Below, piece by piece: positions 18,226 through 64,000 of a stretch of 64,000 nt of DNA. Each line of letters opens with the position of its first letter. Position 1 is the stretch's first letter. The DNA is from Nereocystis luetkeana (Eukaryota > Sar > Phaeophyceae > Laminariales > Laminariaceae): contig JARUPZ010000029.1 of the NCBI GenBank assembly GCA_031213475.1, forward strand, positions 7,720,290-7,784,289, given 5' to 3'. Under the pieces are notes generated by a model, which saw nothing but the letters and a program-made list of their open reading frames with translations, was not told the DNA's origin and ran no database searches. A program made the translations under genes and the position numbers.

Positions 18226-18246
18226 TATTATTATACCAGGTATATA

Positions 18247-40708: not shown

Positions 40709-40797
40709 CCCTTTTAGGACCGCAGTCCCGTTTTGGGAACAACTTACTTAGAATTTCAAGTGTTTTGTCCCCGAAACGGGACTGCGGTTCTAAAGGG
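40709..40797. mobile_element. 89-bp TTAA-type MITE (family B)
   Basis: CCCTTTTAGGACCGCAGTCC at the left and GGACTGCGG-like right arm, flanked by TTAA at 40705-40708 and TCAA at 40798-40801 (one changed base). Confidence 0.85.
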
Positions 40798-40851
40798 TCA
40801 AGACTGCTCATCACCAAAGAAAAAACGGCTTGCCCCAAAGGTCTCTTGGAA

Positions 40852-41203: not shown

Positions 41204-41217
41204 GGAACTCCACAGTA

Positions 41218-41322
41218 TTACGGGGGACCATAGTTAATGGGACCAAATTTTGTTAGTAAAAATGCTTAAATATATAGGTTTTTATGCATACCATAGGTCC
41301 TGTTAACTATGGTCCCCCGTAA
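41218..41322. mobile_element. 105-bp family A MITE, intact
   Basis: TTACGGGGGACC to GGTCCCCCGTAA, exactly 105 bp, flanked by TA at 41216-41217 and 41323-41324. It is nearly identical to the nested copy at 7087. Confidence 0.92.
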
Positions 41323-41717
41323 TAGTACTTGTGTAGAAGGACATACTCGAAAAAAGGGCGGAAAAGTGAATTACATTCCCGTGAGAGGTACGCATAGTCT
41401 ATAGTAATAGTAAGTTGTTGGGCCCAAAATAGGGCGAAAAAGGGATAAAAAAAACTTTGGATTCTTGTTTATTTGAAGTGCTTTTCTGAAATTTAGATGA
41501 ACGGATGTTGTTAGCAAATCCCGTTCATCAATCTGTAGTAGTCCTAAGCCGTTGGTAGATTTTGGCATAATTCCTACCTTCCCTACGACAATCGAGTAAC
41601 GAATATGATGGCTACTGGCTACTGACAAGTATCATCTCTAATACGACGCGTGCTCGACGACAAATTCCAGAGAGGTCCGCCGCTATGGGCGTTGTGACCC
41701 TTGCTATTACGATGAGA

Positions 41718-42835: not shown

Positions 42836-43152
42836 AAAAACACCGGTGTGTCTGTGTGTGTTCTTCACATTAAACCGTTCTTTCTACCCGTCGACATCCA
42901 GCACAACCAGTGTCCGTGCCGATTCTTCAATCCTATCAATAGAAGAGATACAAGTTCTGTGGCCAGAAAGGTAGACTCCTTGCATTGCCCACTGCAGTGC
43001 ATACTGCACACGTGGCAACGTAGTATCTCTGTGGCGTAGCTTTGTGACCACAGAACCTGTATCTCTTCTAGGATTGGAGAATCGGCACGGACACTGGTTG
43101 TGCTGGATGTCGACGGGTAGAAAGAACGGTTTAAAGTGAAGAATACACACAC
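42836..43152. mobile_element. Fold-back element with arms of about 110 bp (family G related)
   Basis: GTGTGTTCTTCACATTAAAC, TTCTTTCTACCCGTCGACAT and CCGTGCCGATTCT at 42855-42965 are repeated, inverted, at 43040-43145 with only a few differences. The central spacer is about 75 bp. The outer part equals the tail side of the family G repeats at 37048 and 43735. Confidence 0.75.
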
Positions 43153-43734
43153 ACTCCTCAGGGTGCTCCCTTTTAACTAGTTTTCCGAGAGCTTTCTCTA
43201 ATAACACGTACCTGGTAGCACTTTTCCGTTTCTCTCCAGAGTGCCTTTGTCTTAGTTGGACTGTTCGTCCATATTTCCAGTTCTGACGGCATCATGAGTC
43301 TTCATCAAAAATCTTCCAAGATCCATTGTTTCTGGCCCCAGTTCTGACCAACAGCCCTTTTTCTGAGCCTATAGAGAAAACGGATTGGCTGCTCCAAAAA
43401 ATAAACTAGGACTCCGGAGAAACGGGAAATTGTCCCTGAAAGCTCGCAAAAAACTACGGGGAGCATTTTGGGGAGTCTATGGGTGTTTTTTTGCTTTCCC
43501 GCCGAGTAAAACGCTATATTCGGCCTAATAACCCAGTTCTGAGAGCTCAGAAGTAATTTCCCATAAAAATAGTTGGACTTATATGATACCTGGTGCTGGA
43601 CTGCTGTAGTATTTTTATTATTTTATTTGTTTCATGTGTTGTTGTGTTCTCGTACCCGGTACGCTGACGCTTCACTTGCTTGACACTTGAATTTGCGATT
43701 TAATTTTATTTTTGGTCTTCCTCTGTCTCACAGT

Positions 43735-45135: not shown

Positions 45136-45789
45136 AATAACGTATTACTGTATCGAAGTACAGCAGTGGTACGCGCACACATAGTTATAACATATTCGTA
45201 TACACACATGAAGGTCTCTATGTAAAGGGGCTCTGTGTAGATTTTGTCTTTGATCCGCTGTATATAGTTTTCTCGGTAGCATAGCAGGCGTTTTTTTAGT
45301 AGACGGGTCGGGGGGGCAAAAGGAAGCAATAGACAGAAAGTCTCTAGGCTTGCATACAATTTCTCGATACGCGCCGATGTCAGTTACAAAGATTTTCACA
45401 TATTTTGTGTCCCTTGAAGTGCCCTCTGCCGCGACGCCACCGCAAGCACTGCAATTAGTACAACCCTAGTATAACTCGTTCCAACGATCTTGCCAGGAGC
45501 TTTCTTTCAAAACAACTCAATCCGTTGGGGAATGTGATATATTGATTAAATAGCCCAAACCAGTGTTCTTCGTGGCCGAAATATTCGCAAACATTGAATT
45601 CCTCTTACTCGCTAAAATATTCGCTCCGTCCGGCGTACGAGACGCCCCTCTTTTCTAGCGTGTGTCGCCGGTCTTTTTCATTCGACGTTTGCTTGTGGAA
45701 GAATGCTCTCGCCGCTAATATGGCAGCAGCAAGCACCAGCTGCAGCGATAACAGTCCCAACCGACCATCAGCTTGCTGTCGTCGTGGCT

Positions 45790-46060
45790 TTTTCTGCCGC
45801 TATACCAAGTATTGAAAATGGCGACTCACCGTGACCAACTTGAGTTTTTTCTCGGCTTTCTCCGCTCGTTGGCGGTAGACCACACCCTTTCCCTCCTTTT
45901 GGACAAAGCGCCTCTGCTACGGCCACTTGCAGAGGCGCTTGGTCTAAGAGGCGGGACAGAGTGGGGTGTACCGCCAACCAGTGGAGGAACCCGAGAGGGA
46001 TCTGGGATTGTTCACTGTGAGTCGCCGTTTTCAATATTTCTCGAAAATGTTGGGGTATGC
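45790..46060. repeat. Fold-back of the P2 first coiled-coil exon
   Basis: The centre is AAGCGCCTCTGC, an 11-base spacer (45918-45928) and its exact complement, and similarity continues outward for about 120-135 bp on each side. Both strands therefore show the same exon end and a GTGAGTCGCC donor: at 45829 reading left and at 46017 reading right. The minus-strand frame (VVYRQRAEKAEKKLKLVT) is open, the plus-strand one has a TAA. Confidence 0.85.
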
Positions 46061-46395
46061 CGGGGCTTGTGCTGATGCTGCTGCTAAAATGCGCTGTCTG
46101 CCCAGCTTGCCTGTTGGTACAACCGCGCGCCACGCATAACTCCGTGCCAAATTGAGGAGCGCCGCAGCGGCAAAGAACCCGCGGTGCCTCGGCAAGGGCT
46201 GCCGTGAGTGTTGTAGCTACAAGTTATGCGCGACGCTCCATGTTTTGTTTCCGTCTCTGCGATTCGCATGGCGAAAAAAACATCCAGGCTGTCGTACGTA
46301 AACACGCTGACGCCCGCCGAGCCAAACTACAACAGCTTTGCGAACTCGCACTATCCGTGCCCCAGCGCATCAATCAAACCACCCTTCCGCCTCAG

Positions 46396-46714
46396 GACCG
46401 ACTTGCACAGGAGCACCTGGCGTCAGACGCTCTGACGGTTGTGCTGAAGGACAAGACGAACGCCGCGCCTTTACACGAGTTAGGTTTTTCTTGACCGACA
46501 GCTTGTGTACCCAGCACGTTCCCGCTAGCTTGATGTTCGAGCTCGCTGTTATTACTGGTGGCTCCTTTTTGGTTGTCTTCGGTGCGCACTCAGAGATCTA
46601 CCACTGTCCGCCCCCTGCGCCGTCTCCTCGAGTTAGGCGCTCAACTGGGGGCTGAAGCGTCTAGTTGACGCTCTGCCTAAGGAGATAGCTGATTGGGACT
46701 CCTGGGCCGATGAG
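46396..46714 (+). pseudogene. P2 coiled-coil exons
   Basis: 46396-46482 reads DRLAQEHLASDALTVVLKDK, similar to DELAHEKMASDAL of P3. 46637-46714 reads LKRLVDALPKEIADWDSWADE in 78 bp, the same length and donor (GAG|GTG) as P1 and P3. Both are open, so this part of P2 is less decayed than the kinase part. Confidence 0.65.
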
Positions 46715-47359
46715 GTGCCCGAGACAGGTGATGCAGACCTACCTGTGCTTGCAGCGTGATGTTCGCTGTTTGTATCCCCACTTTCCTCGACTTTTAGGGG
46801 TAGATAATTATTATAAGGCAGCATCAGTCGGCCGATCCCGACACAACCTGCCTGTAGATGCAAATTTGTATCAGAATATGCGCACCATGCGAACGGAGAC
46901 AACATTTTCATTCCACGGCTGCTTCTTCGGTCGGCATCGAAATACCTTATTCCTGATCACGGCTAGGTATTAATATCACGGCGACACCTACGCGCGCACG
47001 GCCACTCCTAGACTTGGGGGTGAAAAAGGGGACTCTTTCGATGGTTTACCCAAACTCGGGGTGGACACCAAGGCTCGGTGGTCCCTTGATCTCGTGAAGC
47101 CACTAACAAACAAACGGATCTGAGATATTACGGTGACCACAACGTGTGTGTCTTCAATGTGACCACGGACTAGATGATGGCGATGAACTACCCTGAGGTC
47201 AGAAAAGCAACAAACACCACGCGTTATCATTCCCCATGCGTGCGGATAGCAGTATTGGCATCTTACCGCCGAACCTTAGTTACCGCTCCAAGTTTCTGCG
47301 GAAATCAATGCCCTCAGGCTCCGCAACACCCTTCCTACCAGGTACCTGCGATTACAGCC

Positions 47360-47975
47360 CACAACTTCCCGGTTTGATCGTCTTGGTTGCTCACACCGTT
47401 GTAGTCGAACATCAGCGCCCGCGGCGGACGACACCGACCTCCCCTATTTGTAGGACAACGGTTTCCTCGAAACGCCTCCGTGGGTGAGTCCTTTCGACGA
47501 TAAATCGCCCCTACACGCGCAAGCACCGTCAGTCCTCTCGAAACCCTTCCACCTGTTAGATGTCACAGGTTCTATGGTTTGTGTCGCTCATATTTTCGGT
47601 CTTTTTGAAATGTCTACGTTATTCGGCTTCGAACATCCCCCTTCCCCCAGGACGGTACCGTGATCGTGTGGTATCTACTAGAGGGAAGGGGAGTTCGGCA
47701 CCGTACACCGCGGGCGCTTCCAAAGGCCAAGAAGGTGCGCGATCAAGACCATCGAACTGGTGATATCTACGTGCTGGCTGTACGGAAGGGTGTCTCATTG
47801 TTTGGAAACATCCATACCTTTCAGCGTTTAGAGCTCACGGGTTTAATGGTCTTGATTGCGTATTCTGTTTCGGTCGTTTTTCACCGCCCGCCGGTGTACA
47901 AGGGTGTGATATCACGTGCTCGTCCTAGGGGAAGGGGGGTTCCGCATCGTCCACCGCGGGCGCTGTAAAATATTA
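47360..47975. pseudogene. P2 Gly-loop exon copies on alternating strands
   Basis: Plus copies: about 47650-47760 (REGEFGTVHRGR then CAIKTIELV) and 47905-47975 (LGEGGFRIVHRGR). Minus copies: about 47365-47460 (CRPPRAL region) and 47830-47895 (KTTETEYAIKTIKP followed by a GTGAGC donor). Stops interrupt several of them. Neighbouring copies are in opposite orientation. Confidence 0.65.
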
Positions 47976-47989
47976 CCAAGAAGGAGACG

Positions 47990-48290
47990 AGAACTCCTGA
48001 CACCGTGACATCGCTTAGACACTCGACACCAATGATATGCTCGTGGTTTCCCATCCTTTACAGCACTTGCAGCGTATAATACGGAGACTTCAAAATGTTG
48101 CAAACGTAAGATACGCATGTACGTATACATACCTGCTGTGGGGTATGCTCACTCGATGAGTTGTCCGAGGGTGATACCAGGTCGTTGTTTTTCGTGCACG
48201 CCGTGTACATGTCGCACGCAGCGACCCGCAATCCGAGACGTTCTGATCCCACCACATCGCGCAAGGCCTCAGCGGCCATGATTTCAATGT
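47990..48290 (-). pseudogene. P2 hinge exon copies, minus strand
   Basis: On the minus strand 48290-48160 reads DVVGSERLGLRVAACDMYTA and ends at GTGAGC, as the P1 exon 25410-25559 does. 48060-47990 holds the first half again (HEHIIGVECLSDVT). The order is second half then first half, so the exon is duplicated and broken. Confidence 0.6.
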
Positions 48291-48814
48291 GGTTCTTCGT
48301 GCGGTGCAGCTTTACTACTTATATTTGACGGAGACATGACTAACTAGACTTGTTCAAGGCATTGCACGGGAAGAAGCGATGCCGTACTCAGTATTCGGGC
48401 CTGCCCAAACAGACCAGGTAATCAGCCCCCACGGCACAAGTGTACGTGCGGTTTCTCGTGTTTGCAATAGGTATGTCTAAGCGTGGTAGTGTTGCGTAGG
48501 AAGGCTATCGATGGGTTTCGCCGACCTGCGCCGTCTTTCCTGGTGGCTTAAAATGTTACAAACCAGCCGATTCGGGTGAGCGTAAAGTATGTTAGTTCAA
48601 CACTGTAGTGAACAGCGCTCTGGCCTATACGATATCGTAGGAATACTACCGAAAAACCCTGTTGGTGGCATGTTCCCGCGTCGTGTGGTCGACTGTTTCG
48701 ATATTCGCGCAATGACTGCAACTGCTATTGCAGGTACAGTAGGTAAGCAACCTAGGTAAGCAACCCCCCTGCAACGTTGGATGCCGCGTGTTTTTTTTGT
48801 CTACCTGCAGAATG

Positions 48815-49410
48815 ATCGGTTTCGCGCGGTTCAGTTGTACACTTTGAAACGTTTCTACCCTGCTCATACGACATGGTTACCCGTGTTTTTTTCTTGACGT
48901 TATGTAGTTTTTGGCGAGCTTAGAAGCCGACGCGGCCGAAGGCCTGGGTAACATGCACGGCATCGAGGTCGTTAATTGCGAGCACAACGTCGACAGCACT
49001 TTCACCTACCGCTCGGATTTTCCCTACAGGCTTCATGGTCAAAGTGACTGACGCCACTCAGCCCACTTGAGTGTGGTCGGTCACCTTGACCACTTTGCCC
49101 GTAGGGCCATCGGAGCGGTAGATCAACGTGTTGTCGAGCTTGCGATCGCAATTAATGACCCCGATGCTGTGCATGTGCTGCAAGCTTTCTGTAGCGTCGG
49201 CCTCTAAGTTCGTCACAAACATGGCGCCAAGGAAAACAAATCGTGCTGTAGGACATCATTTTTCGAATAGTAAAACACGTACAAGCACCGGAATATGTGA
49301 ACGAATGAGCGTGATATTGCAAACTTTGCGGGCAACATGCGGTCCCGAAACGAGTATGTTGCAGGGATGGGACCATGAAACAGAGCGCGCGAAACCGACC
49401 GTTGTGCAGT
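48815..49410. pseudogene. P2 catalytic-exon fold-back 1
   Basis: Plus arm 48905-49060 (LEADAAEGLGNMHG, then NCEHNVDST) and minus arm 49240-49064 (LEADATESLQHMHS, then NCDRKLDNTL) face tail to tail. The centre reads GACTGACGCCACTCA, a spacer of about seven bases, then TGAGTGTGGTCGGTC. Arms continue into the upstream intron. Identity between arms is roughly two thirds by eye. Confidence 0.75.
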
Positions 49411-49429
49411 CAGAGTCGTAATGGAAATC

Positions 49430-49755
49430 TGATCCCGTGACATCGCTCATACACTCTATGCTGATGACAATGTTGTGTTCTTTCACCCCGCGCAACGCTA
49501 CATACGAACACACAGAGGCACAACATGCTGCAAACCAAAGACACGTTTGTACATGTACATGCGCTATTTTTCCCTTTGGGTGTGCTCACCTAATTTGCTG
49601 GGCAAGGCTGAACGATATGCAAGTCGTTACCGTGTATTTCCTCGGCATATTGTACATTGCGATCTCCATGACGAGAATTCTGATCCCATGACATAGCTCA
49701 AGCAATCGACGCCAATGCCGTTGTTGTGGTTTTCCATCCCGCGCAACTCTACTAG
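49430..49755 (-). pseudogene. P2 hinge exon copies, minus strand, second set
   Basis: 49755-49570 on the minus strand carries IGVDCLSYVMGSE and LVMEIAMYNM, ending at GTGAGC. 49505-49430 repeats the first half (VKEHNIVISIECMSDVTGS). The latter precedes the minus catalytic exon at 49240 in the normal order. Confidence 0.65.
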
Positions 49756-50204
49756 TCGGAGCCATAACTAGCTCAACGTGTTCAAGGCCTGTACAGGAAA
49801 GAGCGTCCCCGTATTCTCATTTGCTCAACAGACCAGGTCACCAGACCCCATGGCACAACGTTCACAGGCGGGTTATCTTGCTTGTGATAGATTTTGTATC
49901 GGCATGACAGACTGCGCAGGGAGGCTACCGATAGGCTTCGCCGTTTAGCGCAGGCGTTCCTGACGATATACTATGTTCTGAAGCAGTCGATTCCGGTTAT
50001 TTAACAAGCCAACACTTCCATCTCTGCAGTGAACGGCGTTCTTGCCCGTACAATTTTGTAGGGATGAGAAGGAAAACATTGTTGGCGGCAATAACTGCCT
50101 GACGTAGAGTTGACCGTTTCGATCACTGTTCGGTGGGTACTGTTTTGGTTGTGGGTGTGGTGAGTCAATACCACCAGCGCAGTTGGAAACCAGCATTTTT
50201 TTTT

Positions 50205-50810
50205 GTCTATGATACCTCGGTTTCGCGCGCTCTACCTCTACATGACGCCCTACAACATGATTGCCTTTTTTCTTCACGCTATGTTATTCTTGGCCAGCTT
50301 CAAAAGCCGATGCGACGGAAGGCCCGAGCCAATTGCACAGCGTCGGGATCATTCGCTGCGAGTACAAGGCCGACAACACGTCGATCAGCCAGATTCTTGT
50401 CCCCGCGGGTTTTGTGGCAGGAGGGGCTAACCCTACTCACCTCACCATTGCGTGGGGTGAGTCAGGGTCAGCGCCCTTGCCCACAAAGCCCGTAGGGTCA
50501 CAGGAGCGGCAGATCAACGTGTTGTCGAGCTCGGGATCGCAAGGTATGACCCCGAGGATGTGCATGTAATCCAAGCGTTTTTTGTGGCGTCCGCTTCGAA
50601 GCTGCCACCAACAACACAGCACGTAAAGAACAAAATTCACGAGAAAACTGCAGGACGTCGTGTGTGTGTGTTAATTGTACACCACGTACAAGCACCGGAA
50701 CGTGTGCACGGTTGAGCGTGATGTTTCAAACTTTGCAGGCAATCTTTAGTCCCGGAACGTGTGCGTGCATGGATAGAACTGTGGAAAAGAGCGCGCCAAG
50801 CCGATCCTTC
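50205..50810. pseudogene. P2 catalytic-exon fold-back 2
   Basis: Plus arm 50270-50450 (FKADATEGPSQLHS, RCEYKADNT) and minus arm 50640-50457 (LDYMHILGVIPCDPELDNTL) again meet tail to tail at the splice-donor end: CCCTACTCACCTCAC, spacer CATTGC, GTGGGGTGAGTCAGGG. Both catalytic loops lack the HxD...K set. It has the same architecture as fold-back 1, which suggests one duplication made both. Confidence 0.75.
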
Positions 50811-50984
50811 TGCAGGTACACATCCGTGTTTCCAATTGTGCAGGTGACGTGTACTGACTACACCTTCAGCAACAACAGCGGTCACTAGACAGTCATCAAA
50901 CCAGTCAACACCTACGACCAAACGAAATTACTTCCAACCATTCGTTCGTAACAAGCTCGACATAAAATACGTTGATATTCAATC

Positions 50985-51050
50985 CGAATGGCCTCTAAGG
51001 GCTTCGTGTGCAAAGTGACTGACCCCGGGCTGTGGTGCGGTGAGTCGGGC
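50985..51050 (+). pseudogene. P2 partial catalytic exon
   Basis: GFVCKVTDPGLWC followed by a GTGAGTCGG donor, the end of the catalytic exon without its first half. The following 700 bp resemble the P1 and P3 introns (for example TCACAGGTTTCTCTGGGTTGG near 51215). Confidence 0.65.
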
Positions 51051-51995
51051 TTCGGAGGGGAAAAGCTTGATTTGCAGGAGGGAACAGAACAAAAGCCGCT
51101 ACAAGTCCCCGTGACTCCAGCCCTTTTTACTACTATTAATAGTGCTGCACCCACGATTTGGGAACTGTGCGTTTGACTCCAACAGGCGGATGACTCTTGC
51201 TAAGGACGTGCGGCATTTCACAGGTTTCTCTGGGTTGGAAAGCATTCCTTGTTGAGCGGTGCCTTTTCCCGATCGAAGTATTCATGTATCGGGGCTTGTC
51301 TGAACGGGGGGCTAGGACCGCAAGCACCACTATTATTTTCGAGATTATTGAAACGGTTCTTTGACATTGAGCGAAAACGCTCCCATATTGTGTGACGAAA
51401 AAATACATTTATTTCAACAGGAGCGTTTTCATGCATATTTTGTAGCTTCGATGTTTTCCGCTTGTTTTTTCAAAAAGGACTACTTATGTTATTTTGTTTT
51501 GTCTCTTGCGAGGTTTCGAAATTTGCTTTTTTTCCACGAAAAAATGGCTTGCGTTTTCAAGCAAAATTGAGACTGCTGTCGCCAGCAGCGTACCTGATGT
51601 ACAGGGTTCGGTTGCGGTCTGCTCGAGCCACGATTGTAGAGACGTGTTTAAGAAGAATATGCTATTTTAAGTAGAATCTCAGCAGGAGGAAGGAAATTAA
51701 ATACCAGCACATACCCACCGTCCCTGCGGGCGAGAAACTCGATAGTTGTCCCAAAATACCATGAACGCCACGTAATTTGCTGAGTAGGGATCGTCGTCAT
51801 TGTTTTCGCCTGTTCGTCACCGGCACCCGGTTTCGTGTTTTGTTTCTGAGGTGCGATTGCTTCGCATGGTACTGACTTTTTTATTAGCAAATATTTAGAC
51901 GTCGACCGTCGCTTGACGCGTGAAAATGAAGGATTCTGTGTATCGACGCAGCTTCAACAGCCCGGTAAGCTGACGGTTTTTATCATGGTCATGCC

Positions 51996-52415
51996 TTGGT
52001 CGTGGTCATGGCAGTTTGTCGACCCCCAGCAGATGTGTCTAATGTTCCGTGTGCGATAGTCATCTACTACCCCAACTCGAGGACAGGGGAGGTGCAACCC
52101 GTTTTTGCGATGCCATTTGTGATACGTCAATGCTTTGGCGAGGGCGAATTGCCCGCGGCAAAGTCGGCTAGAAGTAGTCGTACGGCCGGGAAGGTGCGAC
52201 GGGTTCAGGATAATGACGCTGTCGCGGTGCCCGTCAAGCGTAAGCCGTCCAAACGTTGCAGCCTAGTGCAGTTCGGGGACACACAACTTCGAATAAGGAT
52301 ATTAGTAGGATCTTATTTTGCGGTAGTAAATGGCAAAAGGGCTAGAGCCGCGTTTCAACCGGAGCAGGTGGGAACCCTCTGGGCTTGCGACAGCACCCAG
52401 AACCAACACCCCTGA
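51996..52415 (+). CDS. Open frame of unknown function inside the P2 block
   Basis: A frame of 139 codons that is less biased and more protein-like than most here (CAIVIYYPNSRTGEVQPVFA, FGDTQLRIRILVGSYFAVVN). I recognise no domain. It has no counterpart at the same place in P1, and P3 is cut by the window edge. It could be an unrelated exon or chance. Confidence 0.25.
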   Translation: MVVVMAVCRPPADVSNVPCAIVIYYPNSRTGEVQPVFAMPFVIRQCFGEGELPAAKSARSSRTAGKVRRVQDNDAVAVPVKRKPSKRCSLVQFGDTQLRIRILVGSYFAVVNGKRARAAFQPEQVGTLWACDSTQNQHP

Positions 52416-52915
52416 ACGTTTTTGTGTGTTCCCCCTGTACTACAGCAGTACCTTCGTATGTGTTAGACTCCCCCCTTTAATAGACGGGCGGCCGGCAAGA
52501 GAAATCTGAAAGAGTGAGGCGCCATTCGTGCCTTGAAATTGGCGGTGGCGACTATCGGAGACGCGCCTCGTGGTCCCTTGGGCATGCAGGCTTTGAGATC
52601 AAGGGAGGAGAGCTTCGTCTAGATTTACTACAGATTGTGCATGGTTACGTTTTTTTTGTTTTTCTGCCCGGCAACGTTGTGGTTGCTGCCGTAACACCCC
52701 CCCCTCCAGCAACGGCAGCTGTTACTCAAGTTGCGCCCAGTTTTTAGAGGCGCAAGGTTAGAGTGACCTCGTCTCTAGGTGCGCTGAGTATCCTTTGGCA
52801 TTGATTCTGTTGGTTCTAATTTCTTGTCCTGCGTGGTTGTGCCGAGGGGGAGAATGGACGACATCACCGCCGCCGCCGCCGGTGCAACGTTGACTTGATG
52901 CTGTCAGCCCTGCCG

Positions 52916-52975
52916 CTTCCCTTCCTTCCCTTCCTTCCCTTCCTTCCCTTCCTTCCTTTCCCCCCCCCCCCCCTC
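52916..52975 (+). repeat. (CTTCC)n followed by a C tract
   Basis: About eight CTTCC units, then 14 C, directly before the P2 tail remnant. Confidence 0.9.
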
Positions 52976-52977
52976 CC

Positions 52978-53450
52978 GTGGTGGCACCTCACGTGGAGTG
53001 GATCGGGGGTGATGCAGGCGTTCCTGTGTCATCGGTCGAGGGTGTCCATGCTGGACGCGACGCGACTCCGTCGGCTGCGGAACCTCCTGGGGAAGAGGAA
53101 AACGTGGGCGTGGTCAGGCCCTCCCAGGAGGAAATGGCCGGGTGGGTGGACCCCACTCCCCTCCCGTTCCCCGGCCCGACTGCCGAGGCGCTGGCCAACC
53201 GCCTAGGCGCGCCAGAGGCGGCCCTGGGAGAAGCGGGCGTGGGGGCCATAGTTTGACGCCCCCCCGCTCCCTACGTATTTCCTCACTTCAATGTATCCCG
53301 GGTTTGGCGACACCATCCGCTCCCTGGGAGGCAGTTCCGGATTGGAAAACGTTACCCCTCTCTCACCACTCGCAGTCCTGCTCACCCCGTCGACCATTCT
53401 GCAGGCGGAAGGGGGTGGGCCGGGACGGGCTTCCCTCCGACATTTTTTGC
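52978..53450 (+). pseudogene. Remnant of the kinase repeat tail (P2)
   Basis: EEMAGWVDPTPLPFPGPTAE and ALANRLG resemble EDIAGWAPPFPGSAAQVLANR of the P1 tail. SLGGSSGLENVTP in a shifted frame at 53318 resembles SLGGIVRLESVPP. The change of frame and missing repeats show decay. Confidence 0.6.
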
Positions 53451-55231
53451 GGCTGATGCAAGGCGGTGGTACGTGGGCGTCGCACGGTGCGGTGCGCTCT
53501 CGAGGAAAGGAACACGGAGATAAAGAGCGAGCGGGGCCTTTAGCTGATCGGTATCAGATTGTTCTTCTAGGCGAGGTTCTTGAAGAAGAGTCTGGAGCGC
53601 CGGCGTTCACAACGTCTGTAGTTATGCGAGATGCTGCGGAACCATCCGACGACAGTGCTCAATCCGAGTGTTCCTGTGAGGCCCCGACGGCGGGTTTCCG
53701 GCAGTAACGGTACGTTAGCCGCGTGGGGGGGGGGTAGACAGGGTGGGTTTTGGAAAGCCAATACTAAATCACGGTAGCGTGCGACTGGGTCCGCGGTTGA
53801 CGCTTGGCCGCCTAAAGAGGCTTCGCTTTTGTTTATTTTTTAGTTGTCCGGGCTGCAAACGGAAGAGAAGGGAATGGTCGACTGAAAGTAAGGGGAGGGG
53901 GAAGGGGGGGAGAGTAGGTTATTTCCTTACGTGTGTAGAGAGAGAGAGGCTCAGACTTGAAGTTTGGTTCATACTTAAAGTAGTTCCTTCCACAAGAATA
54001 GATGGCAGACGATGCCGAGTCAGCGATGGACAGCACGGGAAATGCGGCTGGGCCTGCAGTTGGTGCTCGATCGTACAGAGAGGTTTTTTGTTTGGCATTC
54101 ATCGTGGCAACGACTAACGAAGAGAAGGCTGTGGCATGCAATTCCATACCTGGTAGGTGGCATTGCGCCGCTTGCCCAAAGGAAAGGGGGCGTAGACCAT
54201 AGATGCGGGTTTTTATACCTTCGCCCCCGAGGATTGAGGGAAAGGAAAAATGACTCCGCGCGCGTACCTCCCCTCATGCGAATATGCATTTTTTCAAGGT
54301 TGCTTCAATTTTCCCGGACAATCCTCCGTAGTTAATCTTGTCTTGGGGTGTATTCCCGGCGACTATTAATAGCTGCCACCACAGTGCCCAACATAATTTT
54401 GTCTACGGTATCCGGCCAGCGCAGAACCCACAGTACGGAACCCGGCCACTGCGGCATTGATACGGGCAGCCTAATCTAGAGCAAAATAAATAAATACTAT
54501 TAATATTAACACCAGGTATTGGTATGAGATACCCGTGCAGCAGTACAATCATTTATACAAGGTAGATATATCGGTCCAGTACGTACTTTTTCGGTACCAC
54601 AGGACCTACAGGCTCTCTAGCTCTACCGTACCTAGCGGGGAAAGGCACGTGCGTGTCGTTTTTTCATTGTGAGTTTACCAGAAGTTTACAACAGTTCCAT
54701 CAAGTTCCATCAGTTATATTTGTTGATGGTGTTCAGGTCTCACTCGTGACTCTAACGTCCTATTGATAGTCCTACTATTAATAATACCTGCCAACGCTTT
54801 GCGCCGGATCTGTATAAATGATGTTTTACTCTACTATGTACCGTCCTACAGCAGTACCTGGCTGGGTGAAACCCTTTCCTGTACTCGTACACATACCAGC
54901 AACGGATTTGTGTGGGACCTGCAGTAGGATACCGTCCCCTAGCGGTATAATACCCGACCGCTGGGTAGTCTTAGTGCGAGTACCTCGTGTTGAAAACTAT
55001 TCCAGGAGGGTATTTTGATTATCACCATCGGGTAGGTGGGTACTGATAGCAATGCACGTGTAGATACATGCACACTGACATGAAGGTGATGTTAGAGTAG
55101 TATATTCTGACGGACGTGATACTGCCGAAAAGCGCTCGGACGAGGAGAAAAGTTGGAAAAAAAAACGAAAATTTCACAAACATGACCACTGTAACTATAC
55201 ATACACTAGTTTTTTCAAGCCTATGCCTTAA

Positions 55232-55320
55232 CCCTTTTAGGACCGCAGTCCCGTTTTGGGGACAAACTACTTGAAATTTGAGGGAATTGTCCCCAAAACG
55301 GGACTGCGGTTCTAAAAGGG
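55232..55320. mobile_element. 89-bp TTAA-type MITE (family B), intact
   Basis: CCCTTTTAGGACCGCAGTCC to GGTTCTAAAAGGG, flanked by TTAA at 55228-55231 and 55321-55324. The arms are almost perfectly complementary. Confidence 0.9.
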
Positions 55321-55739
55321 TTAAGGGAGCATCTCAACGTACCACAATCATATTTGTTTTAACCATTGCAGCAGCAGCAGCTGTGTCATATCTCGCGGGA
55401 GCTACAATTTCTTCCTCTTGATCAAAAATAAAAAATCGTCATTTTGACTTTCCAGCGTGAGACTCGTGAGAGGTTTTTACCCTCAACCTGTTGTCAGTAA
55501 GTAATTTATCGCCGTTTGCGTTAGAGATTTCCATAACAAGTTGGCAGTTCGTACAAGTGCAGGCTTCGCACCCCAAGTTGGTTTGGTTATTTTACGGTGG
55601 ATCAAGTTCGACAAGACCCCGAAAATTTGCCGATAATTCTTGACGAAATTGAAATAAATGCCAGTGGGCGGACGGTTGTAGGAAAAATGAAAAATCCCAC
55701 ACACATCCAAAGACAGATCATTGACTTCAATCTACTATT

Positions 55740-56240
55740 TAGTAGCAGCTGTATCTGGTAGATCAGTCAGGGCAGAAAGATTCCCGATCTGTATGATATA
55801 GCTCATGCTTCCTGACGGGATCATCTGTATACTGTGCATGATCTACGGTATGTTTCCTGGACTAGATCTGCACGATTGATACTACTACAATAATACGTAG
55901 CAGTGTACGGACCCTGTATACGAGTACAACACCCCTAAATAAACGACAGGTTAGGATCTACAATAGATCGTGACCTGATTTATTTTACATCTCGGACAAA
56001 TCATCGACTCCCAGTTGATGACCTAGATATTTCATGGCAGATCTATTCGCGATCTTTTATGGTACCTGGTATGATCTAGCTCATGTTGCTGGGTACAGCT
56101 AAATTGTGCAGGATCTAGCACATATATACATGCTTCTTGGGTTGGATCTGTACTATTCTTGTTGTGCAGATCTGCACAATCTCCCGGCGGCAGGTGAGGA
56201 ACTGCAGTATTAATAGGTGATTTACTGTAGATCATTATCT
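55740..56240. repeat. GATC-rich degenerate repeat block, second copy
   Basis: Repeated GATCTGTATGAT, GATCTGCAC, GATCTACAATAGATC and similar words at irregular spacing, related to the block at 125-420. Confidence 0.55.
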
Positions 56241-56569
56241 GTCCGAGCTGTGACTATTATGAACTTAGCACAATCTTGATCCGTCGTAAGAGCTTCTAAG
56301 CCCAGGCCATGTTCATACTACAGCAGTACCAGCAGCATGGAAAGCTCTCGCAGAAAATATGGGATACTCCTCCTGACAACAGAAAGTCGTATTCCAAGTT
56401 CCCCGCGGGATCGTGCAGGAAAAAACAACGTTTAAAGTGCACCCAGGATATTTGGGGACAAATTACTCGGAATTATAAATTGGTTAAGTTTTACACCGCT
56501 TACAGCAACGGTAGATTATTAATATTTTGTGCTGGATACACCTGGATACGTTTTTTGGCCCGTTTTTTT

Positions 56570-57844
56570 CAAACGGGATATATAGCTCGTACATCCCCGA
56601 ATAGAGAATGCCTCAGGTTTTCCGCACGTGCTATTCGCGCATCCTACATCTGCACAACACGACCGTACTCGGGCAAGGCAGCCAAGGGCACCAAGGTTCA
56701 GAGAGACGGCGAGCGGCGAAGAGAGAGCACCCGCGACAGCGGCAGCGGCAGCGGCAGCGGCGTGGTGGTTGGTTATCTTCGTTGCTCTGTCCGCGGCTTT
56801 TGCGATAGGCGGTCGCACCCGCGTGGCACGGCGGCTGTGATCGTGTTGCGATTTTCGAGAGCGGAACAGGAACAAGTACCATTGCACCGCTGTGTGAAAC
56901 TTCCGAGATATCACAACACCTATATATATGATGCATGGGGCCAGGATACCCGCTGGCCGGGCGAGGAACCCCGCCATCGAGGCCAACGCCGGATGGCCGA
57001 TCCAACGTGTGGGTGTGGGTCGACAGGTGATTATCGGACCGGCGTGGTTGGGTATAGCGGCCGAACTCAGCTCGTAGGCGTTGGGGGATTGCCGAAACGC
57101 GCGTCCAGAATGGACTTTCTTCTGGTCGGTTGCCATATGAGTACCTCTACCCGTATAATAGACGCGTATGATGCTCAGAGGAGCATGACATAGCCCTTTC
57201 TCGGGAGCAGGTTTCGGCTACTTGTTTGGTATCTTCGAGAGAGACAGAGTTCGGGCGCCGACACGGCACTGACCAGACCGTCGCGTGCGTAAGTCCTCCA
57301 CGTTTAGACCTGTTTGCGAAGATAGGTCATGACTTCCGCCCCTCAGCTTCGATACATCGCTGCTCGTCCATCCTGAAGTATATACCAGGCATACTGTAGA
57401 TCACAGTACAGTAGCAAAAACGAAGATCGTTCTTCCAAACTTTGAACCTAACCGAATATAGTACGAAATCGAAAATTGAAACGCAACCCCAGGAATGTCG
57501 TACGAACGCAGCAATCCAGCGACCCAACAAGGCCAACATCCGAAATAGCGTACGCCGACAACGGAACGCGTAGCGTGATGTTGTGACCCTGTCAAAGCCG
57601 GGTCCCGCCAGGAAGCGATAGCGGGTGACGCCATCCTGACCACGGTGTCCCCGGCGCGACGGCTGCCCCTCTCTCCCACCCTCTCTATGTGTGTTAATCC
57701 ACCGGGAGTTTTCTCAATTCAGACGTACATGTGCTATTCTTACGAGGAACGAGCACAAAAACAAAACAGAACCGAGAGCTTAGCTGGACGCAACCGTACG
57801 TCACGCCCGTCTTTTGTTGTGTTTTACGTACCCCCTGTTGCCAG
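56570..57844 (+). other. Upstream region of kinase gene P3
   Basis: Matches 20870-22133 upstream of P1 in order, with a (CGGCAG)n expansion near 56740. The shared CCCCCTGTTGCCAG acceptor leads into the first recognised exon. A first exon with the start codon should lie here, but I could not identify it. Confidence 0.6.
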
Positions 57845-59686
57845 GCGTGCCCGCACAATATCGTCGCCAGCCCACCGCCAGAGAGGAACGCCGGCATGTC
57901 AGTGCGGGGAGATGCGCGGCATGCGTCACGTCCGATCTACCGACCACCGCCGGTAGTAGGACCTACCAACAATCGATACGCGTCAGCAACCACCAACCCG
58001 CCAGCCTGGAAGCCTGCCGTATTGCTCGAGCAAGGGGCAGTGCGGCACCCCAACCCTCAGATGTTCCCGAGGACGACCGCAGCGGCGGCTGATGATAGTG
58101 GATTTCGTGCTAGTGCGAGAGAAGCTGCGCTAGCTGCGCAGTTGCTGGATGTGCGGGCCAAAGCTCGCAACGAACACGCGCATGCGATAAGGCTGATTGA
58201 AGAGATGAACGCAGAGGTTTTAGCTTGCCGCCAGCGCACGGATGCAGCCGAGAAGCGTCTCATGGTTGTTAGCGTGAGTCGCCGTTTCAATGCCGGAATA
58301 TTTCCCATTTTTTTGCATTTTTCCGGGACTCTTGCTGTTGCTATTGCTGCTGCTACCGCTGCTGCTGAAAGACGTTGGTTGGTCAACTTGCATGCTAGTG
58401 CGACCGCGCTTAGCGCATACCTGGTACCTGGTATATATTCCATACTCTCGGTTGCCTCCCCAGTTGCTGCGATGTGTTTTAGGGCTACAGTACGTAGAAG
58501 TTGAATGATTCACCTCATGCGCTATTATAAGAGCGATTTGTTTTTCATGCTGCGGTTCACGAGGCGGAAGAAAACATGTACCTACTACATATCATACGTA
58601 AGCACTGCTGTACGCCTCGTCGAACCAAGCGTTGTTACGAACTCGAACTCTTCTATGCCCCGGTGCTTCCGTCAAACAACGATTTCGCCTCAGCGCGAGC
58701 TTGAACAAGAGAAGATGGCGTCAGACGCGCTAGCTGTTATCGTGCAGGAGAAGACCGAGTTACTGGCCGCAGAACAGGTTTGATGTTGTATTTTCCTGCT
58801 CGGCAAGCCACATCGGGCAGTCCGTGCGTGACATGTGATTTTGGGTGGCGTCGATAACGTTTGCATGTTGTGTTGCTGTGCGGATTCGCTTCAGTAGCGA
58901 GGAAGAATGCAAACTGACGGTTGTGTGGAGCCCGGCTGCTGCGATATGTCTGATAACTTACCTCAAATTGGTGTATTTTTATATTCCAAACCTGCGGTTC
59001 ACAAGGCGGCCAAAAACATTTACCAGGTACATAAATATATAACATTCTACTAAGTATGTACGCATGCGACGGTCTGCTGAACTAAAACTACTGTACATCT
59101 GGCAGTGTTTTCAAGAACTCGCTCGCTCTCGCTCCGGTTCTTCCGCCAAACAACCCTTACGCCCCCAGGATGAGCTCGCACACGAGAAAATGGCGTCCGA
59201 TGCGCTGGGCAACCTGCTGGCCGAAGAACAGGTATGATGTTTTGTTTTCCTGCTCGGCAAGCTACAGCGGGCAGTCCGTGCGTGATATGCGATTTTGACG
59301 ACATCGGTATGACTGGTTTGTGCTGCCACACATCAGCACCACTTGGACGCGTCACCAGGAGTAGTTGAACTTGCAATAGGTTATCAGTAGTGTGTGTTAA
59401 TACGTGTAGATGCCCTGGGTTAGATCCATACGCCTTGCCGGCGTTCGTGCGGGCTGTTCATTCATACACCGACAGCGTGTCAACCCAGAATTCTCCCGCA
59501 GGCTCGATATTCGAGACCACTTTTTTAATGGTGATTCCTTTGGGGTGCCCGCGGTAAACTCAATCGCTAACCGCTGTCCCACTTTACCTTCTCCGCGAGC
59601 TACTGTAGGGGCGCACAAAGGCGCTGAAGAAAACACTGGAAACACTCCAAAAGGAGAAGGCTGAATCAGAAGCGTGGGTCAACGAG
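57845..59686 (+). CDS. P3 coiled-coil exons
   Basis: 57845-58273 (429 bp) has a Pro-rich start and REAALAAQLLDVRAKARNEH. 58694-58777 (84 bp) has ELEQEKMASDALAVIVQEKT. 59169-59231 (63 bp) has DELAHEKMASDAL, evidently a duplicate of the previous exon. 59609-59686 (78 bp) has LKKTLETLQKEKAESEAWV. The short exons follow CAG or TAG after pyrimidine tracts. Confidence 0.7.
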
Positions 59687-62600
59687 GTGCGCGAGACGGC
59701 TGTAGACACCTCTTTGAGCTTGCAGTTTGGTGTGCGTTCTGCTGCTTGCCGCGTTCCGACCTTTCTTACCGTACCGTGTCGTGGTAGATCGCTCAGACAG
59801 CATCAGTCCGTCGCGACACAGCATGTTTTCGGTTGACATCAGACGATAGTAGGTGCCTTTGTAACGCGCTTAACCACTTCCTCCTCGATAGACGTGAAAT
59901 TATAACCCACCCCTAACCACTGCTATTGACATCACGGCGACACCGACGCGCGCACAACCACGCTCAGCCCCAGGGGAAACATGTTGAGGTATTTTTTTTT
60001 ATTGCCGAAAACTAAAATTTGGCATGAACGCCGTCCAGGTTAACAGAGTGCTCCCCGCGCGCACCCCCTTTCCGCCCGTCACAGCGGACCGATGGCTGGC
60101 AAGCTTTGGGCTATTTACATCCGGGTGGACCTCCGCGCCAAGCGTGGATGCAACAATTGTGCTACTCTGGCATTTTGCGCGATATAGTTCGCACACGGAA
60201 GGCACAAGATTGCGCTTGTAGACGCGAGTTCGCAGCGAACGCGCTAACCAAACCCCACCTGCGATTCAAGAACATCGTCGTCCTAGGACAAGGGGGCTTC
60301 GGCGTCGTGTACAAGGGCCTATGCAGCAAAACTCGTAAAGAATACGCAATAAAGACGGTCGTGCCGGTGAGTTCTGATGGCTCTTGTTAGAAGGAAGGGC
60401 GCTTCAGTGTCTGGCAGTGTTTTTTAGGTTTTCTAGATATTTGCATCGCTACCCAAATTATGCGGTGAAGTGCCAAGGTCGTTATGTTGTACGCAGGTGG
60501 AAATAAAATGCATACATTTGTCGTCTTTGATGGTTTTGTTGTTGGTAGGGATGTTGGCACAGTCTTCCTAATAGCTCGTCACTATAACCTGGTCCATGAC
60601 CACAAGAAGAGTCACGCATTGAATTATCGCCGCGTTGTATGTATGTATGGTTTTGTTCAATAATATTTTAGCGCAATAGCGAAAAATGGCAAGTACAAAT
60701 AAACAAATACGAAAACATTGAAAAAAAAACACATACCAGGGTACTTGATATTTGTGGTGCACGGTAAACTTGAGATTCACACCGTGCGTCTACATAATAC
60801 CACGGACATTCAACGGCACTGTTCTTCCGTGAGCCTGTTGCTTCAGGAGCAGTACAACACGTAAAACGCTGCTGCGGCTACTGCGGCCGTGCACGTCTCG
60901 CGACACATTTTGCTTGCCGTCGCTTACTCACGCGATCGTTTCAACTTGCCGACGTCACCAGACCCCTTCCCATCCATTATTGCACCAGGGTAATTCGGGA
61001 GCCTGCCTGAAACGGGAGCTTATCGCCTACGCCGTGTGAGTGCCCACCTCTTTTGTCTCGCCTAGAGATCAGCGTACTGACCGCGACTGTCTTTGCTAAT
61101 AGATAGGCGCACGCTTGTCGGCGGCGAGCAGCCACCCATGCCAAGGCGATAGTGTCGAAAACCGCACATGGATGGTAGCTTTACTATAGCTGCTACTGCC
61201 GCGCTTTGGTGTGTCCTTCGCGACGTCGGGGGTTTGAAATTGAGACGCTCGGGTGGCCCGAAAACTCTCGCCTCATACCCCCCCCCCCCCCCCCCCCCCC
61301 CCCTCCCCGCCACCTCCTGTATGCCCTCACATCTCAGGATGGGCCCGCATCCGAACGTTATTGACATCGAGTGCCTAAACGATGTTGCGGGGTCCGAGGG
61401 TATAGTGATGGAAATCGCTGTTTGTGACATGTTGGAAGCAAGCTTCGGAACAAGCGTCAAAAAGTTCAGTCTTTCCCAGCAACTGAGGTGACAAGGCCCC
61501 ACGATACGCGTGTGTATATGGTGTCTCTCGCTTGCAACAGATGCGTCCCGATTCGCTACTCATAGAATAGTGTTGAAGAGAACAGGAAGGCCGATCGACG
61601 CGCTTCGCCAGGTCGGGGTTTATTCTCCAACGCTTCGACGTTAAGCGCCGGCGTTCTTGACGATAGATTTATAACCCTTTTAGAACTGCAGTCCCGTATT
61701 GGGGGCATTTCAGTCAAATCCTAAGCAATTTGTCCCGGAAACGGAACTGCAGTACTTTGTCCCGGAAACGGGACTGCAGTACTTTGTCCCGAACACAAGA
61801 CTGCGGTACTTAGTCCCGAAAATGAGACTGCAGTACAAAAAGGGTCAAGTTGCATATAGGCATCCGATTCCGGCGATCGGAATAGAAAGTGTTTCAACAC
61901 TGCAGTGGATGGCGTTTTTAAGTGCACACGATATCGCTAGAAAACGAACGAAGACATTACAGGGGATATCTACTGCGCGTATATATAATCGAACGTGTCG
62001 ATTACCTTCGAGGTAGCCCCTGTTATACTGCTGTATACTTTGAGTAGGTAGTGTTGCGTCAACCCACAGACTACTCGATTTCGCGTGCCCTCTTGCAAAA
62101 GTGCCACCATCCTTACCCAGCACGCACACGTTCCGGGCGCACATTCTGCCTCCTCAAAGTTTGAAACATGGCACTCATCCGTTCACGCGTGCCAGCGTTT
62201 GGACTAGCTGTACCCTTGAAAAAAAACAATACGGGATGCCCACTTCTTTGCAACGATTCGTTTTTTTTGGCGTTGTGTTGTTTGTGGCCAGCCTCCAGGC
62301 GGATGGCACTCAAGGCCTTCACTTTATGCATGGTGCCGGCTTTATCCACTGCGACGTCAAGTTGGCGAACACCTTGATATGCCGCTCCGATGGCCCCACC
62401 GGCTTCGTCGGAAAAGTGACCGACCCTGGCCTGTGGTGTGGTGAGTCAGGGTGCGGGAGTGAATACAGACTTTCAGGAAGCAAGAAAAATAAATACGCGC
62501 AAATTTTCCCCTTGACTTGAAGCTGCTTAGCACCGTGTATTGCACCCACATTTTTTGTTAGTACTTGAATCCAGAGCAGGATCACTCTCGCTGAAACCTA

Positions 62601-64000
62601 CACGCAAAAATCACAGGTTTCTTCGAGTTGGCAGACATTTCTTGTTGTGCGGCGCCTTTTGCGCGCGCAGCAGGGCTTGTACTATCGGAGGCCTAACATG
62701 GCTAATTCCATGTTCTTTTCCCCAGCTTACGGAATGAATTATTGATGCTGCCATTTGGCATTAATGTATCCACAATTTGTGACTAAACAATATGTTCAGT
62801 GGTTATTCCGTGTGGATTTTATTTTGCCGATGCCTTGTGTTCTACCGGTGTACTCTGTTGTCTTTGTTGATGTTTCTTATCAAGTTTTACCGTGTGTTCC
62901 CCATGGATAAGTATCGCGCGTTCTTGCACAACATCATAACGTCTTCTACAGCGACCCTTATGAGATTCGACTTCGGTTAGCTTGAGCCACGAGTGTAAGA
63001 GAGCGGTGTACGAAGAAATCCAACAGTCGAAACGGAGGGAGTACGGGCACATGTACCAGAACACACCCACCCACCTTCGAGGGCGATAATTCCGACTAAC
63101 GCACGCACGATTGCCGCTGATCCCCCCTGCTCGTGACGGGTTCCGTTTGCGTTTTTTTCCGAGGTGCCACTGACCTGCATACGCATGAGATTGCTTTTTT
63201 AAGCGCACACTGTCGGACAACAGCATTAATCGTTCATCGTTCGCTTGGACCCGTTACGTTTTGACGCTTCTCCAATACCAGGGTAGTCGACTTGCACACG
63301 TGTTGCTTGTATACACGTGCTACCCCGGGGCCTTATTGCTACCTTACCTTTTCTCGATACCTGCAGCAGCGAAAACGCGGTCGCCCCTCGCTACACACTT
63401 GCGTCGCCACGGCACGACACGGATAACCTTTCGAGGGCGCAAACAGCACGATATACGGGTTTTCGTTACCCTCCGCAACCTGACAACCCCTCTAATCAAA
63501 CACACAGCCTGGCACCCAACCATGCACACTCTCGTCTTCGTCGCGAATACCGCAGGACTTGGCGAAACGAGAAGCAGGACGACAGGCACCGTGGGATGGA
63601 TCCCTCTGGAAAACATGCGCGGCGACGTCACAGCAGCACCTGACCAAGATGCCTTCTCTGTCGGAGTCGACGTGTGTTCCATCCTGGCCAAGCCTGCGAT
63701 CAAGAGCGAAGACGTCAGCATTTGGTCTTGCTCGGTGAGGGGCGATGCTTTGGTAGTCTGGGTGTCGGTAGGGCTGTAGTACCGGGTATTCGGTCGCGCA
63801 CTGCAACGAACGGCGGTGCTATGCAGCCTAATCTTGGATGTGAACTGTCGCGATAAACCGTCTGCCGCCCCCTATATTTGCACTTATCCCCGTCCCTTCC
63901 CATCGCAACACCAGCAAGCCAACCCACATTCCCCCCTCCGCCTCTCATTCATAGTCCACTTGTGGCATCCCGAACGGCTCTTTCGATCTACTGCAGCAAC
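57845..64000 (+). CDS. TKL-like protein kinase gene P3, 3' end beyond the window
   Basis: Exons: 57845-58273, 58694-58777, 59169-59231, 59609-59686, 60085-60366, 60989-61035, 61338-61487, 62292-62440, 63556-63734 and 63955 to the edge, all with AG/GT borders and continuous phase. The product has coiled-coil segments, CACRREFAANALT, Gly loop GQGGFG, YAIK, an alpha-C exon with KRELIAY, HPNVIDIECL, the catalytic HCDVKLANT, DPG, GTVGWIPLE and DAFSVGVD. The catalytic Asp, Lys and Asn are kept, so activity is possible despite DPG and PLE. No stop or frameshift is seen, so P3 is the best candidate for the working member. Role unknown; TKL kinases often signal. Confidence 0.78.
60085..63734 (+). CDS. 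P3 kinase-domain exons
   Basis: 282, 47, 150, 149 and 179 bp. The last four lengths equal those of P1 exactly; the first is 12 bp shorter. Across splice junctions the reading gives DPG-LWC-GLGETRSRTTGTVGW, that is, the activation segment is cut just after DPG in both genes. This agreement fixes the exon borders with good confidence. Confidence 0.82.
61278..61303 (+). repeat. 26-base C tract in a P3 intron
   Basis: Uninterrupted C run about 35 bp before the acceptor of the hinge exon; P1 has a shorter, interrupted C-rich tract at the same place (25369-25390), so it serves as, or grew from, the polypyrimidine tract. Confidence 0.9.
61675..61845. mobile_element. Family B element with expanded right arm
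   Basis: The left arm CCCTTTTAGAACTGCAGTCC and the GTCAAATCCTAAGCAATT centre are followed by four tandem versions (about 28 bp each) of the right arm, TTTGTCCCGGAAACGG and ACTGCAGTAC, ending AAAAAGGG and TCAA. The left flank is ATAA. Confidence 0.75.

What the first reader, a model, noticed from the sequence alone, without database searches (positions are those of the whole stretch)
45790..53707. Kinase pseudogene built of exon-sized hairpins: a possible hairpin-RNA locus
Between two kinase paralogues that look largely intact lies a third copy in which several exon types (coiled-coil, Gly-loop, hinge and catalytic) occur in opposite orientation close together. Three pairs meet with spacers of about 6-11 bases (centres near 45923, 49060 and 50453). 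A transcript through them would fold into long hairpins whose arms match the mRNAs of P1 and P3. Endogenous hairpin RNAs derived from inverted gene copies silence relatives in flies, nematodes and plants, so a regulatory role is conceivable. The arms have diverged to about two thirds identity in the catalytic pairs, which argues for age or loss of function.
Basis: partly seen in the sequence, partly recalled or inferred. Interest (0 to 1): 0.8.

Follow-up and report, generated by a model that had tools for sequence, protein, structure and literature searches.

The report
Broken kinase gene with folded-back exons
Between two intact protein-kinase genes lies an old broken copy whose exons were copied back and forth in opposite directions; its RNA would fold into long hairpins, but the sequence shows them decaying rather than being kept for use, so it looks like a genomic scar rather than a gene switch.

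Summary
The locus (P2, from 45.8 kb) follows the kinase gene in order but changes direction at least 7 times, up to 11. Three exon-sized hairpins sit at 45807-46039, 48888-49236 and 50266-50635 (fold z -18, -19, -13). No such inverted exons were found in P1 or P3.

The RNA-silencing reading is not supported for P2. Arm-to-arm differences ignore codon position, whereas P1-P3 differences favour third positions. A second P2 copy lies about 254 kb away; 35 of 456 hairpin pairs differ, none by a compensatory double change, and the wobble share is as expected by mutation. No catalytic-arm 21-mer (0 of 606) exactly matches 13 paralogue stretches.

Best reading: a pseudogene shaped by fold-back (template-switch) copying and decaying; the copying mechanism is inferred. 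Weak opposite hints: H1 changes at half its flanks' rate (p 0.02); some arm-to-arm homogenisation is possible.

Larger lead: a second, independent exon hairpin of this family (C29:8203117-8203638, three direct copies), with 261-bp arms and an 89-bp perfect run.

The parts
45807..46039 (.). Hairpin H1: exon-a (coiled-coil) end, antisense 45807-45917 then sense 45929-46039
46292..46765 (+). Sense remnants of exons b and c and nearby intron
47145..47522 (-). Antisense copy of exon d (Gly-loop) and its downstream intron, with stops
47683..47966 (.). Exon-d fragments sense/antisense/sense (47685-47762 +, 47833-47874 -, 47913-47966 +); weaker matches (E 0.0003-0.1)
47997..49409 (.). Tandem unit A: exon f antisense (47974-48054, 48199-48297), f-g intron sense, exon g sense then antisense
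48888..49236 (.). Hairpin H2 (A): exon g sense arm A5 48914-49052, antisense arm A3 49076-49210
49429..50815 (.). Tandem unit B: exon f antisense (49427-49486, 49589-49737), f-g intron sense, exon g sense then antisense
50266..50635 (.). Hairpin H3 (B): exon g sense arm B5 50303-50434, antisense arm B3 50464-50574
50966..51736 (+). Exon-g 3' end with donor site and following intron, sense: P2 returns to parental order
53115..53729 (+). Possible 3' end of the P2 remnant: five short collinear translated matches to the region downstream of P1
20867..27378 (+). P1, kinase gene with open exons (reference)
57845..63734 (+). P3, kinase gene with open exons (reference)

Best explanation
P2 is a dead copy of the P1/P3-type protein-kinase gene. 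During DNA replication or break repair the copying strand folded back or switched template repeatedly within this gene. Read from left to right, the locus therefore follows the parent gene forwards, then backwards over what it had just copied, then forwards again, with turns near exon a, in exon d, in exon f and, in both tandem units, at the 3' end of exon g. A ~1.43-kb stretch holding one catalytic hairpin is present as a tandem pair. The hairpins are by-products of this history. Since then the arms have diverged without visible coding or pairing constraint, apart from possible patches of arm-to-arm homogenisation. Shown: the back-and-forth path, the hairpins, the disablements, arm divergence without codon bias, a second genomic copy with the same structure, and no compensatory change between the copies. 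Inferred: the copying mechanism, the order of events and the absence of function.
For: Back-and-forth path: 7 orientation changes among blastn matches with E<1e-3 to P1/P3, up to 11 with weaker exon matches. The exon-g turn falls within 3 bases of the same parental position in both units (P1 26359/26360 and 26362/26363). Introns are copied too, so it is not a retrocopy. Disablements: stops in the antisense exon-d copy, frameshift in A5, truncated copies. Codon positions of differences: P1-P3 10/6/24, P1-A3 10/6/28, but A3-A5 11/7/13, A3-B3 8/10/6, B5-B3 15/13/12; H1 arms 9/7/7. Second copy of P2: of 456 hairpin pairs 35 differ, 0 by a compensatory double change; Watson-Crick (WC) pairs fall from 347 in the window to 333 in the copy. 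WC-G.U exchanges are 8 of the 28 single changes between a WC pair and a wobble or mismatch; 0.29 is expected (whose test was run with 7 of 28, p 0.84). Paired runs in H1, A and B are no longer than chance (p 0.79, 0.98, 0.77).
Against: H1 differs from its copy at 10 of 233 sites against 61 of 676 in its flanks (p 0.023, uncorrected; H2 p 0.25, H3 p 0.42). In H1 11 of 13 transition-type mismatches are G.U on the + strand, though in A 12 of 21 and in B 10 of 26. H1 arms carry 24 substitutions and no indel. Of 11 window mismatches that changed between copies, 10 are paired in the copy; with no outgroup they may simply be breaks in the window copy. Of 162 core sites, 6 group the arms within each hairpin, 8 group the tandem copies, 0 the control way; under the tandem tree the excess of the first over control has p 0.02 (6 or more alone p 0.063), and under the hairpin tree 8 tandem sites have p 0.008 (1000 simulations each), so some homogenisation or pairing effect is possible. 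The two main topologies tie (AU 0.51 vs 0.53). The 6-bp inverted repeats at the exon-g turn were not tested against chance. A3-A5 pN/pS is 0.60, not 1.
Confidence: 0.75

Rival explanations
1. P2 is a working hairpin-RNA locus: a transcript through it is diced into small RNAs that silence kinase paralogues.
For: Long stable hairpins; a Piwi-domain gene in the genome; H1 evolves slowly and is G.U-rich; inverted repeats and pseudogenes give 21-nt RNAs in Phytophthora (PMC3804510, passages).
Against: 0 compensatory double changes among 35 changed pairs; wobble share as expected by mutation; 0 of 606 catalytic-arm 21-mers exact, 3 with at most one mismatch; P2 vs P1/P3 exons never below 2 mismatches (with introns included 5 sense-strand 21-mers have one mismatch).
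Confidence: 0.07
2. Same dead pseudogene, but the inversions came from separate breaks, inversions and unequal exchange rather than fold-back copying.
For: Junctions have decayed, so no direct trace of template switching remains; a plain tandem duplication accounts for the two catalytic units; inverted repeats at the turn were not tested against chance.
Against: Sense and antisense copies of the same segment lie head to head with 5-11-nt spacers, which a simple inversion does not give because it does not duplicate.
Confidence: 0.15
3. P2 is a store of exon cassettes kept for reshuffling, as proposed for LRR exons of brown-algal ROCO genes (PMC11378527, abstract).
For: Exon-sized copies in both orientations; the A3 frame is open.
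Against: No third-position bias between copies; stops, frameshifts and lost ends.
Confidence: 0.02
4. Assembly or amplification artefact.
For: Close palindromes are a known chimera pattern (recalled).
Against: Arms 22-26% apart; second genomic copy with the same structure.
Confidence: 0.01

Closest known systems
Fold-back inverted duplications primed at short inverted repeats (yeast; PMC10622511, abstract and passages seen)
   Same: Head-to-head inverted copies centred on a short inverted repeat; extra rounds gave triplications or quadruplications with an inverted repeat at the junction
   Different: Those are new, large chromosome rearrangements; here arms are roughly 100-300 nt, old and inside one gene
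Replication template switching that creates and maintains hairpins (PMC8794818, abstract seen); MMBIR model (PMC2621351, search listing only)
   Same: Reverse-complement copy made next to its source; possible homogenisation of arms
   Different: Here at least seven turns lie within about 5 kb of one gene; I did not check the event sizes reported there
Endogenous hairpin-RNA and inverted-repeat siRNA loci (Drosophila hpRNA: PMC10292708, search listing; Phytophthora: PMC3804510, passages)
   Same: Inverted copies able to form long hairpins
   Different: No sign that pairing is kept, poor match to possible targets, no RNA data
miRNA foldbacks of the brown alga Ectocarpus (PMC4513859, passages seen)
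   Same: Long foldbacks (mean 170 nt there, H1 233 nt)
   Different: No small RNA shown here; no pairing conservation
Exon shuffling in brown-algal ROCO genes (PMC11378527, abstract and outline seen)
   Same: Exon-sized units duplicated in a gene family
   Different: No coding constraint between P2 copies, many of them antisense

Membership tests
Unprocessed pseudogene of the local kinase family | Homology to intact genes, introns included | tested here: met
Unprocessed pseudogene of the local kinase family | Disabling changes | tested here: met
   Stops, frameshift, truncated and inverted exons
Unprocessed pseudogene of the local kinase family | Divergence without coding constraint | tested here: met
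   No third-position excess between arms; A3-A5 pN/pS 0.60 is intermediate
Hairpin-RNA / endo-siRNA locus | Long inverted repeat | tested here: met
Hairpin-RNA / endo-siRNA locus | Transcription and 20-25-nt RNAs | not testable with these tools
   No RNA data
Hairpin-RNA / endo-siRNA locus | High complementarity to a target | tested here: not met
   Catalytic arms: 0 of 606 21-mers exact, 3 with at most one mismatch, against P1, P3 and 11 of the 65 matches. H1 arms tested against P1/P3 only (best 4 mismatches in exons)
Hairpin-RNA / endo-siRNA locus | Pairing kept by selection | tested here: not met
   0 compensatory double changes among 35 changed pairs; H1 evolves slowly
Hairpin-RNA / endo-siRNA locus | Argonaute and Dicer in the genome | tested here: inconclusive
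   Piwi domain found (5 pieces); the RNase III request did not complete
Fold-back / template-switch product | Head-to-head sense and antisense copies with short spacer, path returning to parental order | tested here: met
Fold-back / template-switch product | Short inverted repeat or microhomology at the turn | tested here: inconclusive
   6-bp inverted repeats at the exon-g end of P3 (loop 18) and P1 (loop 16), not tested against chance

The most novel reading that the evidence does not exclude
This kinase cluster repeatedly gives birth to exon hairpins by fold-back copying, and arm-to-arm conversion keeps some of them nearly perfect for a time. P2 is an old one in decay; the second locus (H4, three 522-bp hairpins with an 89-bp perfect duplex) is a young one that acts as, or is becoming, a hairpin-RNA locus acting on the kinase family. 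Together they would be a birth-to-death series of hairpin-RNA genes from one family.
Probability: 0.12. Interest if true: 0.75.

Novelty: new member of a known kind. Interest (0 to 1): 0.38.

Why it matters
If the reading holds, the locus records repeated fold-back copying inside one gene, with at least seven turns in about 5 kb and two copies in one genome that can be compared. It also shows that a striking predicted hairpin can be a mutational by-product, and how genomic copies can tell the two apart. The second, much better hairpin found in the same family makes the question whether such scars become silencing loci directly testable by small-RNA sequencing.

Tried and rejected
Rejected: exon-cassette reserve (no codon bias between copies); assembly artefact (arms 22-26% apart; second copy); retrocopy (introns present); dispersed repeats as the source of the hairpins (H1 has no other copy in the regions compared, H2 and H3 only kinase-related ones). 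Led nowhere: Rfam at gathering thresholds (0 matches), tRNA scan (0), IMG/VR search with the P1 kinase (7 pattern matches, none confirmed). I hoped that a tree of the four arms would date inversion against tandem duplication; it does not, and in the larger tree a decayed paralogue (C29:8298669) falls among the P2 arms at 63-76% support, so the arms are not shown to be one clade. The organism is not identified; that it is a brown alga is my guess from recall and rests on no call. Paper searches made; the listings, capped at 3 to 12 titles each, showed no report of this locus or of a kinase-exon hairpin of this kind; only open-licence papers are held.
Full report
What is there. The window lies in a 465-Mb, 1987-contig genome at C29:7720290-7784289. 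P1 and P3 are multi-exon protein-kinase genes (Pfam Pkinase E 2.7e-19 and 1.5e-17 for their joined exon peptides) with coiled-coil exons upstream. P2 between them matches the same exons and introns, but on both strands. From left to right it visits the parent gene in this order: a antisense, a sense, b and c sense, d and its intron antisense, d sense, d antisense, d sense, f antisense twice, f-g intron sense, g sense, g antisense with intron, f antisense twice, f-g intron sense, g sense, g antisense with intron, g 3' end sense and onward. Counting only blastn matches to P1/P3 with E below 1e-3 there are 7 changes of direction; the weaker exon-d matches raise this to 11. Sense copies of the exon-f end at 48322-48440 and 49750-49840 are likely but weak (E 0.36 for the second; the first only by its repeat match to the second).

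The hairpins. H1 (45807-46039), H2 (48888-49236) and H3 (50266-50635) fold with z -18.3, -18.9 and -12.5; the antisense transcript of H2 folds almost as well (-205.0 against -213.5 kcal/mol). Arms are 78%, 76% and 74% identical with 0, 2 and 9 gap openings. H2 and H3 sit in two tandem units, 62.8% identical over 1455 columns. In the window and the adjoining 200 kb, 19 close palindromes were found; 15 are dispersed repeats and 4 are not, three of them these.

Coding constraint. Between P1 and P3 the catalytic exon differs mostly at third codon positions (10/6/24). The same holds between P1 and A3 (10/6/28), A5 (12/8/25) and B3 (12/9/22), less so for B5 (15/14/21). Between arms there is no such bias: A3-A5 11/7/13, A3-B5 18/16/17, A3-B3 8/10/6, A5-B5 20/14/16, A5-B3 12/11/11, B5-B3 15/13/12, and 9/7/7 in H1. 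So coding constraint acted before the copies split and is not seen after.

Pairing, tested on a second genomic copy. A 95.9%-identical copy of P2 with the same arrangement lies inverted at about C29:8.02 Mb, with a 98.9%-identical P3 copy whose exon peptides are 98-100% identical; a kinase nearly identical to P1 in exon g lies at C29:8045355. Divergence along P2 is patchy, 0.2-8.9% per 500 bases. Over 456 hairpin pairs, 35 differ between the copies (H1 9, H2 14, H3 12). By type: Watson-Crick (WC) to G.U 7, WC to mismatch 13, WC to gap 2, mismatch to WC 7, mismatch to G.U 3, G.U to mismatch 1, G.U to WC 1, mismatch to mismatch 1. One pair changed on both sides, without restoring pairing; none is a compensatory double change. 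Exchanges between WC and G.U are 8 of the 28 single changes between a WC pair and a wobble or mismatch; with the measured transition bias 0.29 is expected by mutation alone (tested there as 7 of 28, p 0.84).

Results the other way. H1 changes at about half the rate of its flanks (10/233 against 61/676, p 0.023, uncorrected for three hairpins); H2 and H3 do not differ from theirs (p 0.25, 0.42). H1 has 11 G.U against 2 A.C mismatches, A 12 against 9, B 10 against 16. Of 11 window mismatches that changed, 10 are paired in the copy; without an outgroup these can be breaks in the window copy. In the four-arm comparison, sites grouping the arms within each hairpin number 6, sites grouping tandem copies 8, control sites 0 of 162; simulation under the tandem tree gives p 0.063 for 6 or more and 0.02 for the excess over control, and under the hairpin tree p 0.008 for 8 or more tandem sites. 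Both signals are thus present, as expected if the hairpin is older than the tandem pair and arms were later partly homogenised. Three of the six lie within 11 columns at the apex, which fits local homogenisation better than scattered compensation. Topology tests do not separate the two (AU 0.51 and 0.53; the third topology 0.012).

Could it target kinases? No 21-mer of P2 (45790-51320, either strand) matches P1/P3 exons with fewer than 2 mismatches; in the six hairpin arms 6 have 2 (5 in A3, 1 in B3); with introns included 5 sense-strand 21-mers of P2 have one mismatch. Against exon-g stretches of 13 paralogues (P1, P3 and 11 of the 65 genome matches), 0 of 606 catalytic-arm 21-mers are exact, 3 have at most one and 25 at most two mismatches. 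A Piwi-domain (Argonaute-type) gene is present (5 pieces at C2:13350796-13356173); the RNase III search did not complete.

Mechanism. Head-to-head sense and antisense copies with 5-11-nt spacers, and a path that returns to parental order, are what fold-back priming or template switching would leave (PMC10622511, passages; PMC8794818, abstract). The exon-g turn falls at the same parental place, within 3 bases, in both units. P1 and P3 carry 6-bp inverted repeats there, but I did not test that against chance. The step from structure to mechanism is inference.

A second exon hairpin in the family. The exon-g search gave 65 matches at E<=0.01, among them three pairs of opposite copies 12 nt apart at C29:8203258-8210540. 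The fetched 9 kb (L031) holds three direct copies, about 3.5 kb apart, of a 522-bp palindrome: 233 of 261 pairs are WC, there are no indels, MFE is -457.9 kcal/mol and z -45.7. Its arms are exon g from about residue 17 on, donor and intron, antisense then sense, with the apex inside the exon, whereas P2's are sense then antisense with the apex at the exon's 3' end. The tree puts its arms together (99%) and next to other paralogues (84%) than P2's arms (71-76%). So it most likely arose independently. It has an 89-bp run without mismatch (p 0.0001 for random placement). Copies 1 and 2 are identical in the hairpin; copy 3 differs at 4 positions in 3 pairs: one double change C-G to G-C, one mismatch of copy 1 that is paired in copy 3, one pair broken. 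This fits arm-to-arm conversion or selection and cannot separate them. Its exon arms differ 6/5/6 by codon position. It has exact 21-mer matches to three of the five paralogues examined (two on C23, one on C29); all span the exon-intron border or lie in the intron, so none would be whole in spliced mRNA.

Verdict. P2 is best read as a decaying pseudogene with serial inverted exon duplications; a hairpin-RNA role for P2 is unlikely but not excluded without RNA data. Interest is moderate, and rises mainly because of the second hairpin locus.

Noticed in passing
L031:618-1139, 4129-4650, 7661-8182 (C29:8203117-8203638 and two direct copies): 522-bp kinase-exon hairpin in three direct copies, 89% paired without indels, 89-bp perfect run, one double change between copies; a better hairpin-RNA candidate than P2.
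   Followed up: partly
window 45467-64000 and C29:8.009-8.028 Mb (L008-L010): Inverted segmental duplication of P2 and P3 (P3 98.9%), with a kinase nearly identical to P1 in exon g at C29:8045355; P2 divergence is patchy (0.2-8.9% per 500 bases), which suggests gene conversion.
   Followed up: partly
window 49935-49970, 25690-25725, 61632-61665: A 34-36-base stretch of the f-g intron is 88-94% identical between P2 and P1 or P3, more than the neighbouring exons; unexplained.
   Followed up: no
window 7016-7234, 12569-12863, 18084-18523, 42850-43154 (also 40698-40808, 41216-41324, 55226-55326): Dispersed palindromic repeats (MITE-like); the first four have copies in 58, 29, 54 and 10 2-kb bins of 264 kb.
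   Followed up: partly
window 62293-62440 and 26228-26376: The P1 and P3 kinases read HCD and DPG where kinases usually have HRD and DFG (the usual motifs are recalled).
   Followed up: no
L015:2881-3409 (C29:7827170-7827698): The only other non-dispersed close palindrome in the 264 kb examined (529 bp, 61%); not identified.
   Followed up: no
window 29439-29914: 117-bp tandem repeat within a GC-rich 541-codon open frame (28323-29948) downstream of P1.
   Followed up: no
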